From positions 1 to 25,124 of IMG/VR virus record IMGVR_UViG_3300046748_000031: 25,124 bases of DNA; one strand, written 5' to 3'. A program made the position numbers and the translations under genes. The notes beneath the pieces were generated by a model that was not told the DNA's origin, ran no database searches, and saw nothing but the letters and a program-made list of their open reading frames with translations. Shown here in pieces: positions 688 to 24,374 of this stretch; positions within the stretch are counted from its first letter, which is position 1; each line of letters starts with the position of its first letter. Source of the DNA: a virus.

Positions 688-708
688 GGGTGAAGATATG
701 ATGAAACA

Positions 709-1176
709 GTGGCACAGAAACATGATGTACAAAAGGATGTTGAAGAATATCCAAATCCCTGGCAATATATGGGTACCATTTTTAGTGGGACTGATCTTGG
801 GGACTACTATGGTTTTGTTTATAAAATTACTTGTGAAACCACCAACCGTTGTTACATCGGAAGAAAGTATTTCTGGCAGAAACGAAAGCCTAGAAGTAAT
901 AATTCAACTAAAAAACGGAGAAGAGTTACAAGTGAGAGCAACTGGAAGAACTACTATGGAAGTTCTGAAGAACTTAAAGCAGATCGAAAAATATTTGGAG
1001 ACGCAGCGTTCAAACGAGAGATCTTATCCCTCCACACCACGCCAGGAAGAGTCAATTATGCAGAAACAAGGCAACTCTTCCTTCATGACGTTTTAACTGA
1101 GGCACTTGACAATGGAGAACCAGCATATTATAATTCTAATATACTAGGAAGGTACTATCGTAAAGATTATTTTTAA
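709..1176 (+). CDS. GIY-YIG-like putative endonuclease, GTG start
   Basis: The 155-residue product carries the two halves of a GIY-YIG motif, 'GFVYKI' (35-40) and 'CYIGRKYF' (48-55), with R52 in the expected place. Further along, 'ETRQLFLHDVL' (119-129) has a Glu that could be catalytic, and 'AYYNSN' (139-144) is near the end. GIY-YIG nucleases cut DNA and include phage homing enzymes, but related proteins in T4-like cyanophages are uncharacterised, so the activity is inference. A basic stretch 'KKRRR' (68-72) could bind nucleic acid. The start is unusual: the only start codon upstream of the conserved N-terminal part is GTG at 709, because an in-frame TGA lies at 691. A well-placed late promoter precedes it. 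A 132-codon ORF beginning at ATG 698 overlaps it in another frame and is judged a shadow. Confidence 0.7.
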   Translation: MAQKHDVQKDVEEYPNPWQYMGTIFSGTDLGDYYGFVYKITCETTNRCYIGRKYFWQKRKPRSNNSTKKRRRVTSESNWKNYYGSSEELKADRKIFGDAAFKREILSLHTTPGRVNYAETRQLFLHDVLTEALDNGEPAYYNSNILGRYYRKDYF

Positions 1177-1463: not shown

Positions 1464-1688
1464 ATGATTAACCTAGAAGAAAAATTTGAATCCTACATCA
1501 AACATGGTAGTAGTAAGGGTTTTCGTATAGATGGTGTTATTGAACCAGTCACGGGGTATGGTTACCATTGTGATGGTTCCGACATCGTTGGGTACTGGGT
1601 TAACACTAGAAATTATAAACTGTACTATAATATGAACGAACAGTTCATAAAAATGGAACCTTTAAATGAACACAGCAACTTAACATGA
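1464..1688 (+). CDS. Hypothetical protein, 74 residues, coupled to talC
   Basis: This is an unrecognised small protein with many Tyr and Gly residues ('GYGYHCDGSDIVGYWVNTRNY', residues 31-51) and no membrane segment. A strong Shine-Dalgarno sequence (GAGGAGAG, from 1456) sits directly before the ATG. Its stop overlaps the talC start (ATGA at 1685-1688), so the two genes are probably translationally coupled. The coupling suggests co-expression with the carbon-metabolism genes, but says nothing firm about function. Confidence 0.65.
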   Translation: MINLEEKFESYIKHGSSKGFRIDGVIEPVTGYGYHCDGSDIVGYWVNTRNYKLYYNMNEQFIKMEPLNEHSNLT

Positions 1689-2338
1689 AAATATTTTTAG
1701 ATACAGCAGATATTAATGAGATTCGTGAGCGTTGGGACACTGGTCTTATCAGTGGTGTAACTACTAACCCAACTCTTGTTCGTAAAGCAGGTGGTAAGTA
1801 CGTAGATCTTGCCATTTCAATCTTAGAGGAGTTTCCAGAGATTGAATCTCTTTCTTTGGAACTTGATGGTAAAGATGATATGGATTATAGACGTAACATG
1901 GGTGAGTTCTATCTCGGTCATCCTGCAATTACATTGAAAGTACCTTGTACAAGAGAAGGTCTTAAGTTCGTTACTCATTGTGCAGAGAATAATGTACCAA
2001 CCAATGTAACATTGTGCTTCACTGCTGCCCAAGCAGTAATGGCAGGTCTTTCTGGTGCTACTATGATCTCACCATTCGTGGGTCGTATGAATGATAACTC
2101 TCTTAGTGGTGTTGAACTTGTGCGTTCTATCGCTGGACTATATAAACAGCATGGGGTAGAGACTAAGGTCTTAGCAGCATCATTAAGAGATGCTCATCAT
2201 GTGTCTAGGTGCCTTCTAGCAGGTGCTGATATAGTGACGTTACCTCCTAGCACCTTTGATAAGATGTATGATAGTGTGCTAACCCGTGAAGGGTTGGAAA
2301 TATTCAACAACGATTTTAAGGAGATGAGCAGTCAATGA
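1685..2338 (+). CDS. talC: Transaldolase, TalC/fructose-6-phosphate aldolase-like
   Basis: This 217-residue class I aldolase has the short transaldolase form (TalC/FSA type). It shows 'FLDTAD' (4-9), 'GVTTNPTLV' (24-32), the Schiff-base lysine K85 in 'ITLKVPCTREG', 'NVTLCFTAAQA' (107-117), 'ISPFVGRM' (128-135) and 'GADIVTLPPS' (180-189). K85 matches the position of the FSA active lysine, and the length is normal. Transaldolase moves three-carbon units in the pentose phosphate pathway. Cyanophage TalC is a well-known auxiliary metabolic enzyme, thought to favour pentose phosphate flux, giving NADPH and ribose for nucleotides, over the Calvin cycle during infection. Start and stop overlap both neighbours by ATGA, and glutaredoxin follows directly, which fits a redox and nucleotide-supply operon. 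Confidence 0.95.
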   Translation: MKIFLDTADINEIRERWDTGLISGVTTNPTLVRKAGGKYVDLAISILEEFPEIESLSLELDGKDDMDYRRNMGEFYLGHPAITLKVPCTREGLKFVTHCAENNVPTNVTLCFTAAQAVMAGLSGATMISPFVGRMNDNSLSGVELVRSIAGLYKQHGVETKVLAASLRDAHHVSRCLLAGADIVTLPPSTFDKMYDSVLTREGLEIFNNDFKEMSSQ

Positions 2339-3361: not shown

Positions 3362-4003
3362 ATGAAATACGAGAACAACTTCAGTGTAATGTTCTCTGTC
3401 CCACCTTTAATGACTTCATTATATCCTCATGAGGATTTTAATGACATCGTTAATCATATAAAGGGATTACAATATGGAACTAATAATAAGTGTCATGACA
3501 ATTCAAAGTCAATAGACACATTTGTTCTCAATAAAGACATTCTTAGTAATCTCAATGAGTTTATCAAAGACTGTGTTAAAGAGTATACTGATAAAATCTT
3601 CGTTACTGATCAGGAACTTGATGTCACACAGTCTTGGGTAAACAAAACTAAGATAGGACAAGAACATCATTACCACTACCATCCAAATAGTATTCTTAGT
3701 GGAGTATTCTTTTTGCAGTCAGGTGGTGAAAACATATCACCAATTAAATTTTTAAATAATAGGAACGATGCCTTTCATTTAGAATTTAAAAAAAATGTTA
3801 ATCCATTTAATGAATTCAATCAATCATCATACCAATATCCTTCGCAACCTAGGGTATTAGTATTGTTTCCTAGTTATATTCCACATTGTGTACCATTAAA
3901 TACTGGTGATGATAGATATAGTCTTTCTTTTAACACCTTTCCATCAGGTTCATTTGGGAGTAAAACGGGTTTAACATATGTTAATTTGGAAAGGGAGGTT
4001 TAA
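3362..4003 (+). CDS. 2OG-Fe(II) oxygenase-like protein
   Basis: The 213-residue product matches a phage and marine-bacterial group of 2-oxoglutarate/Fe(II) dioxygenases. It has 'QSWVNKTKIGQ' (90-100), then a His-rich metal-site segment 'HHYHYHPNSILSGVFFL' (102-118), and a distal His and Arg in 'LFPSYIPHCVPLN' (168-180, H175) and 'DDRYSLSF' (183-190, R185). In this family the first histidine and acidic or equivalent residue plus the distal His bind iron, and the Arg binds 2-oxoglutarate. The exact first ligands (H105 or H107) are uncertain. The substrate is unknown; hydroxylation of a protein or small molecule is possible. It is the last gene of its operon and ends inside a terminator hairpin. 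Confidence 0.75.
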   Translation: MKYENNFSVMFSVPPLMTSLYPHEDFNDIVNHIKGLQYGTNNKCHDNSKSIDTFVLNKDILSNLNEFIKDCVKEYTDKIFVTDQELDVTQSWVNKTKIGQEHHYHYHPNSILSGVFFLQSGGENISPIKFLNNRNDAFHLEFKKNVNPFNEFNQSSYQYPSQPRVLVLFPSYIPHCVPLNTGDDRYSLSFNTFPSGSFGSKTGLTYVNLEREV

Positions 4004-4023: not shown

Positions 4024-4031
4024 AATAAATA
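4024..4031 (+). promoter_or_regulatory. T4-type late promoter (NATAAATA)
   Basis: AATAAATA ends 37 nt before the ATG at 4069. It directly follows the terminator, so it is the natural start of late transcription for the tail-appendage block. Confidence 0.7.
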
Positions 4032-6399: not shown

Positions 6400-6407
6400 A
6401 ATAAATA
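6400..6407 (+). promoter_or_regulatory. T4-type late promoter (NATAAATA)
   Basis: AATAAATA begins directly after the preceding stop codon and ends 23 nt before the ATG at 6431. An AAGGAG ribosome-binding site lies between (6413-6418). Confidence 0.7.
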
Positions 6408-6430: not shown

Positions 6431-7402
6431 ATGGCAATTAATTTTCCCTCAACAGGAGGGCAGGCAACTGACGGAACATTCACGTATGTAGCAGCAGGTA
6501 TTACCTACTCGTGGAATGGTGAAAGCTGGAATGCTGCTGGTAGTGGTGCTACTGCAACAGACAGAACAGTTTTCAGTGCTACTACTGCATCTGCTGGATC
6601 GACGTCACTATCATACAACAGTAACAATGGTGTTTTTACATACACACCACCAGACCTTAGTAGTTATTTGACATCAACTGGTGCACTTAATACACATATT
6701 GATGTCAACCACGGCACTCCTAGTAATGGGGATCTGTTATATTGGAATGGACCTAATCTTAAGTGGGAAAATCTAACACCTGGTTCTAGTAGTGGTTTAG
6801 ATGCGGATCTCTTGGATGGTGAGGAAGGATCTTATTATCGGAATGCTGATAATATTAATACGGGAACTATAGGATCTGGTAGATTATCTGGATCTTATAA
6901 TATTAGTATTGGTGGTTCTGCTGCTAGTATTCCTACTGTTAATGACATTGGTAATGCAAGCATCTCTTCAGTTACTGATGGTCAAACTCTTAGGTATGAT
7001 GGTAGCAATTGGATCAACAGTGATGTAAGTACAAGAAGAACTATTGCTATTACACAACCAAGTGCTACGGATGGTAGTGCGTATAATTTATCAATCAGTG
7101 GTGCTCCAAATACTTATGCTCTCTTGAAAATTGAAACATCACATGCTGCGTGGGTAACACTATACACAGATACCAGTAGCAGAACAAATGATTCTACTAG
7201 GAGTGAGGATACTGACCCAACACCTGGTGATGGTGTTATTGCGGAAGTAATTACTGGTGGTTCTGTATCACAGAAACTTACTCCAGCACCGTTCGGATAT
7301 AGTGACACACAAAACAATACTATTTACGTAAAAGCAGTAAACAAAAGTGGTAGCACAGTTAACTTACAAGTAACTGTAACTGTAGTTGCATTAGAGGAGT
7401 AA
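6431..7402 (+). CDS. Tail fibre-like structural protein, 323 residues
   Basis: The N-terminus 'AINFPSTGGQATDGTFTY' followed by 'YSWNGESW' is a common opening of marine phage tail proteins. Next comes the 'NGVFTYTPPDLSSYLTST' module shared with the gene upstream. Then 'GLDADLLDGEEGSYYRNADN' and 'GTIGSGRLSGSYNI' (near residues 123-155) form a repeat unit widespread in phage tail fibres. The last 120 residues are a beta-rich domain with 'YALLKIETSHAAWVTLY' and no recognised catalytic motif; this may be the receptor-facing tip. It has its own late promoter and Shine-Dalgarno sequence. The stop lies one base before the ATG of the protease gene, and its GAGGAG end serves as that gene's ribosome-binding site, so the two are probably coupled. 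Confidence 0.7.
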   Translation: MAINFPSTGGQATDGTFTYVAAGITYSWNGESWNAAGSGATATDRTVFSATTASAGSTSLSYNSNNGVFTYTPPDLSSYLTSTGALNTHIDVNHGTPSNGDLLYWNGPNLKWENLTPGSSSGLDADLLDGEEGSYYRNADNINTGTIGSGRLSGSYNISIGGSAASIPTVNDIGNASISSVTDGQTLRYDGSNWINSDVSTRRTIAITQPSATDGSAYNLSISGAPNTYALLKIETSHAAWVTLYTDTSSRTNDSTRSEDTDPTPGDGVIAEVITGGSVSQKLTPAPFGYSDTQNNTIYVKAVNKSGSTVNLQVTVTVVALEE

Positions 7403-7403
7403 C

Positions 7404-9452
7404 ATGACATCAAAAGTATATGTTGTCACCTTATATCGTAAGGAAGATCTACCAAATTTTTATGCTGAAATGGCGAAGGATAATATCCGATTAGAAAAGA
7501 AGAGACCTATCAGTAGAAATACAAATTATTATTTGACTGAAGAACAAGCAGAAGAACTACGTAAAGATCCTAGAGTGTGGGGAGTAGAAGCTCAGGAAGA
7601 CTTTAAGATTAAACCATGTGTTATTAATAGAGAACCATATGCTAAGAGTGGTGTCTTTTGGAAATCAGATACTCAGGGACAAATGACTGTTAGTCCTAAC
7701 GATTTCCAGTGGGGACATATTCATTGTGCAGGAAATGATGGACAACGTGGTAAAAATAATTTTGGACCTATCAATTTGGGATGGAATTATGAAAATACAA
7801 ATGATACTATTGAAGTCTTTAATTCTGGTAAACATGTAGATGTTGTTATTGTTGATGATTGTGTATCATATGATAGTGAAGAGTGGTACAGTCCGACTAC
7901 TGGACAGACAAGATTTGTTCAGTATCAGTGGTTAACTGAACTGAATACTTTGGTTAATAGTATTGATGATGATGCACAGTCAGAACCAACTGGTACTATT
8001 ACATACCATGAAAATGGAAGTATGTCTTCTTATCATGGTAATCATGTGAGTGGTACTGTTGCAGGACAACATTATGGGTGGGCAAGAGAAGCAAATATAT
8101 ACAATCTTGCAGTTATTGATCCATGGGCATCTGGTCAGTCAATTCCTCCACTACTAATCTTTGATTACCTTAGAGCATTTCATAGATCAAAAGGTATTAA
8201 TTCAGACACAGGTAAGAAAAATCCTACCATAACCAATCATAGTTATGGTGGCATTAGATACATGCCTAATGAACAGAACCTTCAGTTTGGTGATGTGATA
8301 TCGGTAACATTCAGAGGGGTGCAGTATGATTCTGGTAATCCAGGACCATCTGGTTGGACTCAGAGTGGTGTGGAAGATGATTTTGGTGTTAGATTTAACT
8401 TATCAGAATACCCAACATATAGTTCATCAATTGCTGCTGATGTACAAGATGCTATCGCAGAAGGTGTTGTTGTTGTGGGAGCTGCTGGAAATGATAATTT
8501 ATTAGTAGCACAAGTAGGTGATCAAGATTGGGATAATACTTTACAAGTTAATGGTGTTGGAACTTTCTTTTATAATAGAGGTGCATGGCCCAATAGTCCT
8601 GATAGTGGTGCAATAAATGTTGGTGCTTTGAATAAACAAGCAGACTTTAGAAGATCTACTTACACACAATTTGGTCCTGGCATTTCAGTATTTGCACCTG
8701 GTGATAATATTATATCTGCATATGGAAATGGTGGTTTAAATGATAGTAAATACGGACAAGGATCTGGAAATTATTTTTATCCTATTAGTGGAACTAGTAT
8801 GGCATCACCTCAGGTATGTGGTGTACTTGCTTGCCTAGCAACAGCAAAGGATAGATTTAATCAAGAACACTCGTTTGCATACTTAGAAAAGTTATCTAAA
8901 GATAATGATATGTCATTTAATCTTTCTGGTGGAGGTTTAGGTGATAATACTTGTTCGTTTGGCAGTCCAAACAAATATCTTTTAGCACAGTCACCAAGAG
9001 AAATTGTTGGTTACATTAAAGATGTAGATGGTAGAAGAATATCTGGTGGTCAAACATACCCTAGATCTCATAGATTATTTTCGGAACCTCCTATAAGTCA
9101 GTCTATGAATGTTACATTTACTGTAGTTGTAGGTGGTGGAAATTATATTTTTACTGGAACTGATAGGGTTAATACATTCAATGATACAAATAATCCAAAC
9201 ATTAGAATTAATGCTGGAGATAAGATTGTATTCACATTAAATACATCTGGACATCCATTTTTAGTTAAGACTGCTGCTACTACTGGAACTGGTGATCAAC
9301 TTATAACTTATAGTGGTAGTGGATATGGAGTTTTAAGGAACGATTCAATTGATGGTGATGTCACTCTTTACACAGAAGGACTGGCAGGAACCACACTTTA
9401 TTATATTTGTAGATTCCATAGTTCAATGCAAGGGCAGATCATTATCTCGTAA
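7404..9452 (+). CDS. Subtilisin-like serine protease with C-terminal cupredoxin-like domain
   Basis: This 682-residue protein has three parts. Residues 1-75 resemble an I9 propeptide ('KVYVVTLY' and 'LTEEQAEELRKDPRVWGVE'). An S8 peptidase core follows with Asp in 'VVIVDD' (D151 or D152), H211 in 'HGNHVSGT', the oxyanion Asn N363 in 'AAGND', and S465 in 'GTSMASP', so the catalytic triad looks intact. The last ~115 residues resemble a blue-copper fold: H617 in 'SGHPFLVKT', then C669, H672 and M675 in 'YYICRFHSSMQGQ'. No signal peptide is present. It lies inside the tail-appendage block, one base after the preceding gene, so I infer a virion-attached protease acting on the host surface or on structural proteins. 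Copper binding and target are untested. Confidence 0.85.
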   Translation: MTSKVYVVTLYRKEDLPNFYAEMAKDNIRLEKKRPISRNTNYYLTEEQAEELRKDPRVWGVEAQEDFKIKPCVINREPYAKSGVFWKSDTQGQMTVSPNDFQWGHIHCAGNDGQRGKNNFGPINLGWNYENTNDTIEVFNSGKHVDVVIVDDCVSYDSEEWYSPTTGQTRFVQYQWLTELNTLVNSIDDDAQSEPTGTITYHENGSMSSYHGNHVSGTVAGQHYGWAREANIYNLAVIDPWASGQSIPPLLIFDYLRAFHRSKGINSDTGKKNPTITNHSYGGIRYMPNEQNLQFGDVISVTFRGVQYDSGNPGPSGWTQSGVEDDFGVRFNLSEYPTYSSSIAADVQDAIAEGVVVVGAAGNDNLLVAQVGDQDWDNTLQVNGVGTFFYNRGAWPNSPDSGAINVGALNKQADFRRSTYTQFGPGISVFAPGDNIISAYGNGGLNDSKYGQGSGNYFYPISGTSMASPQVCGVLACLATAKDRFNQEHSFAYLEKLSKDNDMSFNLSGGGLGDNTCSFGSPNKYLLAQSPREIVGYIKDVDGRRISGGQTYPRSHRLFSEPPISQSMNVTFTVVVGGGNYIFTGTDRVNTFNDTNNPNIRINAGDKIVFTLNTSGHPFLVKTAATTGTGDQLITYSGSGYGVLRNDSIDGDVTLYTEGLAGTTLYYICRFHSSMQGQIIIS

Positions 9453-23967: not shown

Positions 23968-23999
23968 GAATATGCAAACTCTAGGGGATATTGTTTCCG

Positions 24000-24010
24000 T
24001 ATTTATTTAT
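24000..24010 (-). promoter_or_regulatory. Minus-strand late promoter (overlapping double ATAAATA)
   Basis: On the minus strand this reads ATAAATAAATA, two overlapping copies of the late motif. The downstream copy ends 32 nt before the ATG of the exported protein at 23967. It is the only late promoter seen on this strand and makes the secreted cassette an independent late unit. Confidence 0.7.
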
Positions 24011-24017
24011 TCAAGTT

Positions 24018-24036
24018 GCTTATGTTCACTATAAGC
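24018..24036. other. Short inverted repeat between divergent promoters
   Basis: GCTTAT (24018-24023) pairs with ATAAGC (24031-24036) around a 7-nt loop. It lies between the minus-strand late promoter and the plus-strand early promoter. It could be a weak hairpin or protein-binding site; it is short and AT-rich, so chance is possible. The rest of the 188-nt intergenic region (23968-24155) shows only the two promoters. Confidence 0.3.
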
Positions 24037-24096
24037 ATTTATTACATACAAAAATTCATTATATTATTGATAAGAAATACTTATATAGACCGTACC

Positions 24097-24125
24097 TTTA
24101 CAAAACTTTATCTTTGCTATATAAT
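24097..24125 (+). promoter_or_regulatory. Strong sigma70-type promoter for the hli cluster
   Basis: TTTACA (24097-24102, 5 of 6 to the -35 consensus) and TATAAT (24120-24125, perfect -10) are separated by exactly 17 nt. Transcription would start near 24132, about 24 nt before the first hli ATG. This is the best host-type promoter in the window and fits early expression by host RNA polymerase. Confidence 0.8.
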
Positions 24126-24155
24126 ATTGTTACATTACTTTACAAACCAAAGCAA

Positions 24156-24374
24156 ATGACTTCTTCAACTGCCAAAAGATACACTACTACCGAGTATGGT
24201 AAGCAAAACATGTTCGCAGCAGAGCCTCCTATACAGTACGTTGAGAACTACAAGGGATACGGACTAAATGCAGAGCAACTTAACGGTCGTCTAGCGATGA
24301 TCGGTTTTGTAGCAGCATTGACATCCTACATTTCATCTGGTAGTATATTCTTCTTTGGTACTTTCGGTATTTAA
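24156..24374 (+). CDS. hli: High-light-inducible protein (72 residues)
   Basis: I choose the ATG at 24156 because earlier in-frame starts lie upstream of the promoter. The product has a polar N-terminal half ('TSSTAKRYTTTEYGKQNMF') and a C-terminal membrane helix with the Hlip chlorophyll-binding signature 'AEQLNGRLAMIGFVAAL'. High-light-inducible proteins are one-helix relatives of plant light-harvesting proteins. They bind chlorophyll and carotenoid and protect photosystem II. Phage copies are thought to keep photosynthesis running during infection. The long N-terminal extension is typical of the larger Hlip type. Its stop shares one base with the next ATG (TAATG). Confidence 0.9.
   Translation: MTSSTAKRYTTTEYGKQNMFAAEPPIQYVENYKGYGLNAEQLNGRLAMIGFVAALTSYISSGSIFFFGTFGI

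What the first reader, a model, noticed from the sequence alone, without database searches (positions are those of the whole stretch)
7404..9452. Phage tail-region protease fused to a cupredoxin-like domain
One 682-residue protein combines an I9-like propeptide, an S8 core with an apparently complete triad (D151/152, H211, S465, N363) and a C-terminal domain with plausible copper ligands (H617, C669, H672, M675). A protease inside the tail-appendage block could trim host surface proteins or mature other fibres. The role of a possible copper site is unclear.
Basis: partly seen in the sequence, partly recalled or inferred. Interest (0 to 1): 0.6.

Follow-up and report, generated by a model that had tools for sequence, protein, structure and literature searches.

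The report
Phage tail protease with copper-site domain
A virus of marine cyanobacteria makes a tail protein that joins a protein-cutting enzyme (a subtilisin relative) to a domain that looks like a blue-copper protein with its copper site intact, and relatives of that copper domain occur in the tail proteins of many marine viruses, although no one has yet shown that it binds copper or what it does.

Summary
ORF 7404-9452 (682 aa), in the tail block of a T4-like cyanophage, is an S8 peptidase (Pfam 5.8e-20). D151, H211, N363 and S465 are essentially invariant in about 120 relatives; D152 is not. The I9-like propeptide is plausible but unproven. Residues 563-682 form a cupredoxin: AlphaFold pLDDT 96.5, best solved-structure match rusticyanin, profile hits to plastocyanin and amicyanin. 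H617, C669, H672 and M675 are the four most conserved positions among 113 distinct domains (about 99%), with amicyanin-type C-x2-H-x2-M spacing; where the site is lost, three or all four ligands go together. The module also occurs in other cyanophage appendage proteins and at over 550 places in viral contigs, and it is optional: some close relatives stop cleanly before it. The protease gene lies 1 nt behind a fibre gene whose last ~120 residues are conserved beside nearly every relative. Elsewhere that fibre domain precedes a second tip-protein family that often carries the same cupredoxin, which suggests a docking cassette. A distant S8 homologue and a cupredoxin-bearing fibre of phage S-SCSM1 are marked as virion proteins. 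Activity, copper binding and role are untested. I found no paper describing the fusion.

The parts
7404..9452 (+). CDS of the S8 protease-cupredoxin fusion, 682 aa
   Evidence: relatives
7404..7604 (+). N-terminal I9-like (possible propeptide) region, residues 1-67
   Evidence: weak: Pfam I9 E 0.023 below cut-off; order of elements
7830..8870 (+). Peptidase S8 catalytic domain, residues 143-489
   Evidence: E 5.8e-20
7854..7856 (+). codon of catalytic D151
   Evidence: 117 of 118
8034..8036 (+). codon of catalytic H211
   Evidence: 120 of 120
8490..8492 (+). codon of oxyanion-hole N363
   Evidence: 120 of 120
8796..8798 (+). codon of catalytic S465
   Evidence: 121 of 121
9090..9449 (+). cupredoxin domain, residues 563-682
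9252..9254 (+). codon of H617, first copper ligand by homology
   Evidence: 104 of 105
9408..9428 (+). codons of C669, H672 and M675 (C-x2-H-x2-M), the other three ligands by homology
   Evidence: 108/109, 107/108, 108/109; spacing
6431..7402 (+). CDS of the coupled upstream fibre protein, 323 aa
   Evidence: phrog_9627
7028..7399 (+). conserved C-terminal domain of the upstream fibre protein (residues 200-323), proposed docking domain
   Evidence: present upstream of 95 of 98 relatives
7394..7399 (+). GAGGAG, Shine-Dalgarno-like site for the protease gene inside the last two codons of the fibre gene
   Evidence: read from the sequence

Best explanation
This is a tail-appendage protease of a T4-like marine cyanophage. 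SHOWN by sequence and model: a subtilase domain with an intact catalytic set, followed by a cupredoxin domain with a complete type-1 copper ligand set (His, Cys, His, Met), encoded 1 nt behind a fibre gene with a conserved C-terminal domain. INFERRED: the protein is co-translated with the fibre protein, docks on the fibre's C-terminal domain and is displayed in the virion; the N-terminal I9-like domain keeps it inactive until assembly; on adsorption the protease cuts proteins of the cyanobacterial surface to help attachment or penetration. The cupredoxin is an optional, swappable appendage module that binds one copper ion, more likely for a rigid fold and surface binding than for protease chemistry, since proteases that lack it keep the same catalytic residues and the same fibre partner.
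For: S8 match and conserved catalytic residues. Cupredoxin fold and ligands. Proteases without the module keep the triad and fibre partner. Fibre domain conserved and coupled and also coupled to a second, non-S8 family. Tail block location. S-SCSM1 S8 homologue SSCSM1_228 and cupredoxin-bearing fibre SSCSM1_231 marked as virion proteins (PMC9602691). The module recurs in fibre connectors and proximal fibres.
Against: No direct evidence of protease activity, copper binding or presence of this protein or a close relative in virions. The S-SCSM1 homologue is distant (28.5% identity), and the count of marked proteins (48) does not equal the 45 reported. The I9 match is below threshold. Foldseek TM-scores to copper proteins are moderate, about 0.5. 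The upstream fibre domain could be a substrate rather than a dock.
Confidence: 0.5

Rival explanations
1. Morphogenetic protease: it acts during assembly, cutting itself and the coupled fibre protein (or neighbouring structural proteins) to mature the appendage, and does not act on the host.
For: Coupling to one fibre domain in nearly all relatives; a possible propeptide.
Against: The same fibre domain is coupled elsewhere to a family with no S8 match, so it does not need this protease; an S8 homologue is marked as retained in virions.
Confidence: 0.25
2. The C-terminal domain is a metal-free beta-sandwich used only for binding or trimer contacts; the ligand residues are kept for structure.
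For: Three related domains lack all four ligands and a fourth keeps only the Met, yet all keep the rest of the fold pattern. Copper binding was not tested.
Against: The four ligands are the most conserved columns of the domain, with metal-site spacing, and in the exceptions they are lost together.
Confidence: 0.12
3. An electron-transfer protein for the infected cell, akin to phage plastocyanin (petE), that happens to be fused to a protease.
For: Cyanophages carry petE (PMC3037559; S-SCSM1 petE); fold and ligands are of the same general type.
Against: The domain is fused to tail proteins and lies in the tail block; in S-SCSM1 petE is a separate short gene far from it.
Confidence: 0.04

Closest known systems
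Peptidase family S8 (subtilases; proteinase K and subtilisin type), PF00082
   Same: Fold family, Asp-His-Ser triad, oxyanion Asn, HGxH and GTSMASP motifs
   Different: Encoded in a phage tail block, coupled to a fibre gene, VIVDD in place of the common D-S/T-G motif, cupredoxin fused at the C-terminus
Type-1 (blue) copper cupredoxins: rusticyanin, amicyanin, plastocyanin (PF00127)
   Same: Fold match and all four ligands; C-x2-H-x2-M spacing as in amicyanin
   Different: A domain inside virion proteins rather than a small electron carrier; below the Pfam cut-off for the window's own copy
phrog_9158 and cyanophage genes annotated 'subtilisin-like serine protease'
   Same: Full-length match (E 5.6e-288); same gene neighbourhood in S-CAM4, S-H9-1, S-WAM2 and S-RSM4
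   Different: Those records name at most the peptidase; the cupredoxin part and the fibre pairing are not annotated
phrog_677, baseplate wedge tail fibre connector of cyanophages
   Same: Shares the cupredoxin domain at its C-terminus
   Different: No S8 domain
Iron (HxH) sites proposed in marine phage tail fibres (PMC11705849)
   Same: A metal site proposed in a marine phage tail fibre
   Different: Different metal and fold; a type-1 copper site instead of repeated HxH motifs in a fibre trimer

Membership tests
Peptidase S8 | Match to the family profile above its curated cut-off | tested here: met
   PF00082, 72.2 bits against 21.8
Peptidase S8 | Asp-His-Ser triad and oxyanion Asn in the family order | tested here: met
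   D151, H211, N363, S465
Peptidase S8 | Proteolytic activity lost on Ser replacement | not testable with these tools
   needs purified protein
Inhibitor I9 propeptide | Match to I9 profile above its cut-off | tested here: inconclusive
   E 0.023, 15.8 bits against 21.2; no PDB profile hit; element order fits
Type-1 copper cupredoxin | Cupredoxin (Greek-key beta-barrel) fold | tested here: met
   pLDDT 96.5, all-beta; rusticyanin top at E 1.7e-5, probability 1.00, TM about 0.5
Type-1 copper cupredoxin | His, Cys, His, Met ligands at the right positions and spacing | tested here: met
Type-1 copper cupredoxin | Pfam PF00127 cut-off reached | tested here: not met
   window domain 13.8 bits against 21.2; 40 of 88 relatives match at E of 0.01 or better, best 5.8e-9
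Type-1 copper cupredoxin | Binds copper, intense absorption near 600 nm | not testable with these tools
   needs purified protein
Virion tail-appendage protein | Gene lies in the tail-fibre and structural block | tested here: met
Virion tail-appendage protein | Present in purified virions | tested here: inconclusive
   Distant homologue SSCSM1_228 marked '(virion protein)' (PMC9602691); nothing found for close relatives

The most novel reading that the evidence does not exclude
Marine phages display true type-1 copper centres on their tail appendages as a widespread, exchangeable module, here carried on a protease docked to a fibre tip, and use the bound copper in recognising or attacking the host surface: a copper counterpart to the iron proposed in tail fibres.
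Probability: 0.3. Interest if true: 0.8.

Novelty: new variant of a known kind. Interest (0 to 1): 0.55.

Why it matters
If the domain binds copper, blue-copper sites would be a common part of marine phage tails, which would bear on host recognition and on trace-metal chemistry in the sea. A virion protease with a fixed fibre partner would give a concrete, testable case of a tail enzyme that attacks or remodels proteins, whereas the familiar tail enzymes attack sugars or peptidoglycan (general knowledge). Public records of these genes name at most the peptidase.

Tried and rejected
Single-sequence search of the C-terminal domain against PDB gave only chance hits; the profile was needed. Late-promoter-like motifs at 4024 and 6400 are not above chance in number. 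Literature searches for cyanophage with cupredoxin, plastocyanin-like tail fibres, or subtilisin-like tail proteins found no description of the fusion; the only hit for cyanophage with cupredoxin was the Borg paper, and the library lacks most subscription journals. Considered and rejected: that the S8 is a degenerate pseudoenzyme (catalytic set intact), and that the fusion is an assembly artefact (same fusion in complete isolate genomes).

Full report
WHAT IS THERE. The window is a fragment of a T4-like cyanophage genome (its record is a 25,124-base virus contig). DNA matches are to Synechococcus and Prochlorococcus phages, and it runs through a tail-fibre and virion-structural block. It has full-length relatives in S-CAM4, ACG-2014e/i/j and S-H9-1 at 57-63% identity and in IMG/VR contigs at up to 87%. 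So the fusion is a conserved gene, not a chimera of assembly.

PROTEASE. Pfam Peptidase_S8 matches residues 143-489 at E 5.8e-20. A profile of relatives matches extracellular subtilases, proteinase K and subtilisins. In 122 distinct relatives the catalytic residues are essentially invariant: D151 in 117 of 118, H211 and N363 in all 120, S465 in all 121. The serine lay in a pattern used to find some relatives; the others did not. The first 67 residues resemble an I9 propeptide in order of elements, but the Pfam match is below its cut-off and no solved structure matches. I call this plausible, not shown.

COPPER-TYPE DOMAIN. Residues 563-682 are a cupredoxin. Family profiles hit plastocyanin, rusticyanin, amicyanin and nitrite reductase in the PDB. 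A model from 88 diverse sequences has mean pLDDT 96.5, and Foldseek ranks rusticyanin first (E 1.7e-5, probability 1.00, TM about 0.5). In an alignment of 113 distinct domains the four most conserved columns are M675, C669, H672 and H617, each about 99%. H672 and M675 were never used to find sequences. Among domains not matching the patterns that contained H617 or C669, 39 of 40 and 55 of 56 still have the residue. In the 88-sequence set 84 have all four, with C-x2-H-x2-M in 81 (the amicyanin spacing). Three related exceptions lack all four and a fourth keeps only the Met. This is what one shared metal site predicts.

THE MODULE IS WIDESPREAD AND OPTIONAL. It occurs at the C-terminus of the protease, in tandem copies, inserted within S8 proteins, in tail-fibre connectors, in proximal tail fibres and in short proteins of 127 aa. 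In about 85,000 cellular genomes only 15 loci were found by the same approach, several of them from Flavobacteriia, with the same ligand pattern in the domains read. Conversely, 17 of 109 distinct near-full proteases end cleanly before it, including one 88% identical over the protease part. S-WAM2, S-CREM1 and S-H38 carry no copy anywhere, and S-RSM4 and Sf-FR1 have only weak partial matches. The fraction with the module among my loci is inflated by the searches; among the isolate phages about half the species have it in the same protein.

A FIXED PARTNER. The stop codon of ORF 6431-7402 ends 1 nt before the protease start, and its last two sense codons form a GAGGAG Shine-Dalgarno-like site. 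Among 98 relatives with a readable upstream ORF the gap is 1 nt in 75. In 95 the upstream protein is similar to the window's, in nearly all cases over the same C-terminal ~120 residues, although total length varies from about 100 to 1,723 residues (profile check 91 of 94). The domain has no convincing Pfam or PDB match. Where it is not followed by this protease it is usually followed within a few nt by another large protein. In S-CAM1 that is a very divergent S8 with a cupredoxin inside. In S-BM3, Sf-CH1b, S-SCSM1, S-H9-1 and several contigs it is a second family of about 610-860 aa, several of whose members carry a cupredoxin. S-CRES1 is an exception. This suggests a docking domain that presents exchangeable tip proteins; docking is inference.

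LOCATION. In S-SCSM1 the S8 homologue (SSCSM1_228) and a fibre with both a cupredoxin and the fibre C-terminal domain (SSCSM1_231) are marked '(virion protein)'. The paper reports 45 proteins found by mass spectrometry in purified virions (PMC9602691). I count 48 marks in the record, so the agreement is close but not exact. No proteomics was found for a close relative.

MECHANISM AND RIVALS. Best supported: a virion protease docked on a fibre C-terminal domain, with a copper-binding appendage module that the protease itself does not need. Host-surface cleavage is the favoured use because homologues are marked as virion proteins and the fibre domain also partners a family without an S8 match. 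A role only in assembly is the main rival. A metal-free beta-sandwich, or an electron-transfer role in the cell, is less likely.

KNOWN OR NEW. S8 peptidases in cyanophages are known (PMC3037559; record annotations). I found no paper that describes the cupredoxin part or the fibre pairing, within a library that lacks most subscription journals. A metal in marine phage tail fibres has been proposed for iron (PMC11705849). I therefore rate this a new variant of a known kind.

Noticed in passing
window 7028-7399; also L177, L178, L180, L020: A ~120-residue fibre C-terminal domain without a convincing Pfam or PDB match ends nearly every fibre gene upstream of this protease family, usually with a 1-nt gap, and is coupled elsewhere to other large proteins.
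   Followed up: partly
L178:3883-6180, L020:2572-4875, L162, L134, L136, L111, L131, L123, L142: A second, unnamed protein family (about 610-860 aa) follows the same fibre domain, and several members carry an internal cupredoxin.
   Followed up: partly
L152:7720-8037, L156:7735-8058, L157:5679-6002: Cupredoxin domains in which all four copper ligands are replaced while the rest of the domain pattern is kept.
   Followed up: no
L017, L081, L096, L107: The cupredoxin is inserted inside the S8 domain rather than at its C-terminus; in L107 the catalytic Asp aligns with Glu.
   Followed up: no
L181-L195: Cellular relatives of the cupredoxin domain in Flavobacteriia and a few other bacteria, with the same ligand pattern, mostly at the end of longer proteins.
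   Followed up: partly
window 4024-4031 and 6400-6407: AATAAATA motifs like T4 late promoters sit just before ORFs 4069 and 6431; their number in the window is not above chance.
   Followed up: partly
window 698-1176: Two overlapping + strand ORFs in different frames (698-1096 and 709-1176); the second looks like a GIY-YIG endonuclease by eye.
   Followed up: no
window 1685-2338, 3362-4003, 23991-24374: Usual cyanophage auxiliary genes: transaldolase and a 2OG-Fe(II) oxygenase (both by Pfam), and a C-terminal stretch that looks like a high-light-inducible protein (by eye).
   Followed up: no
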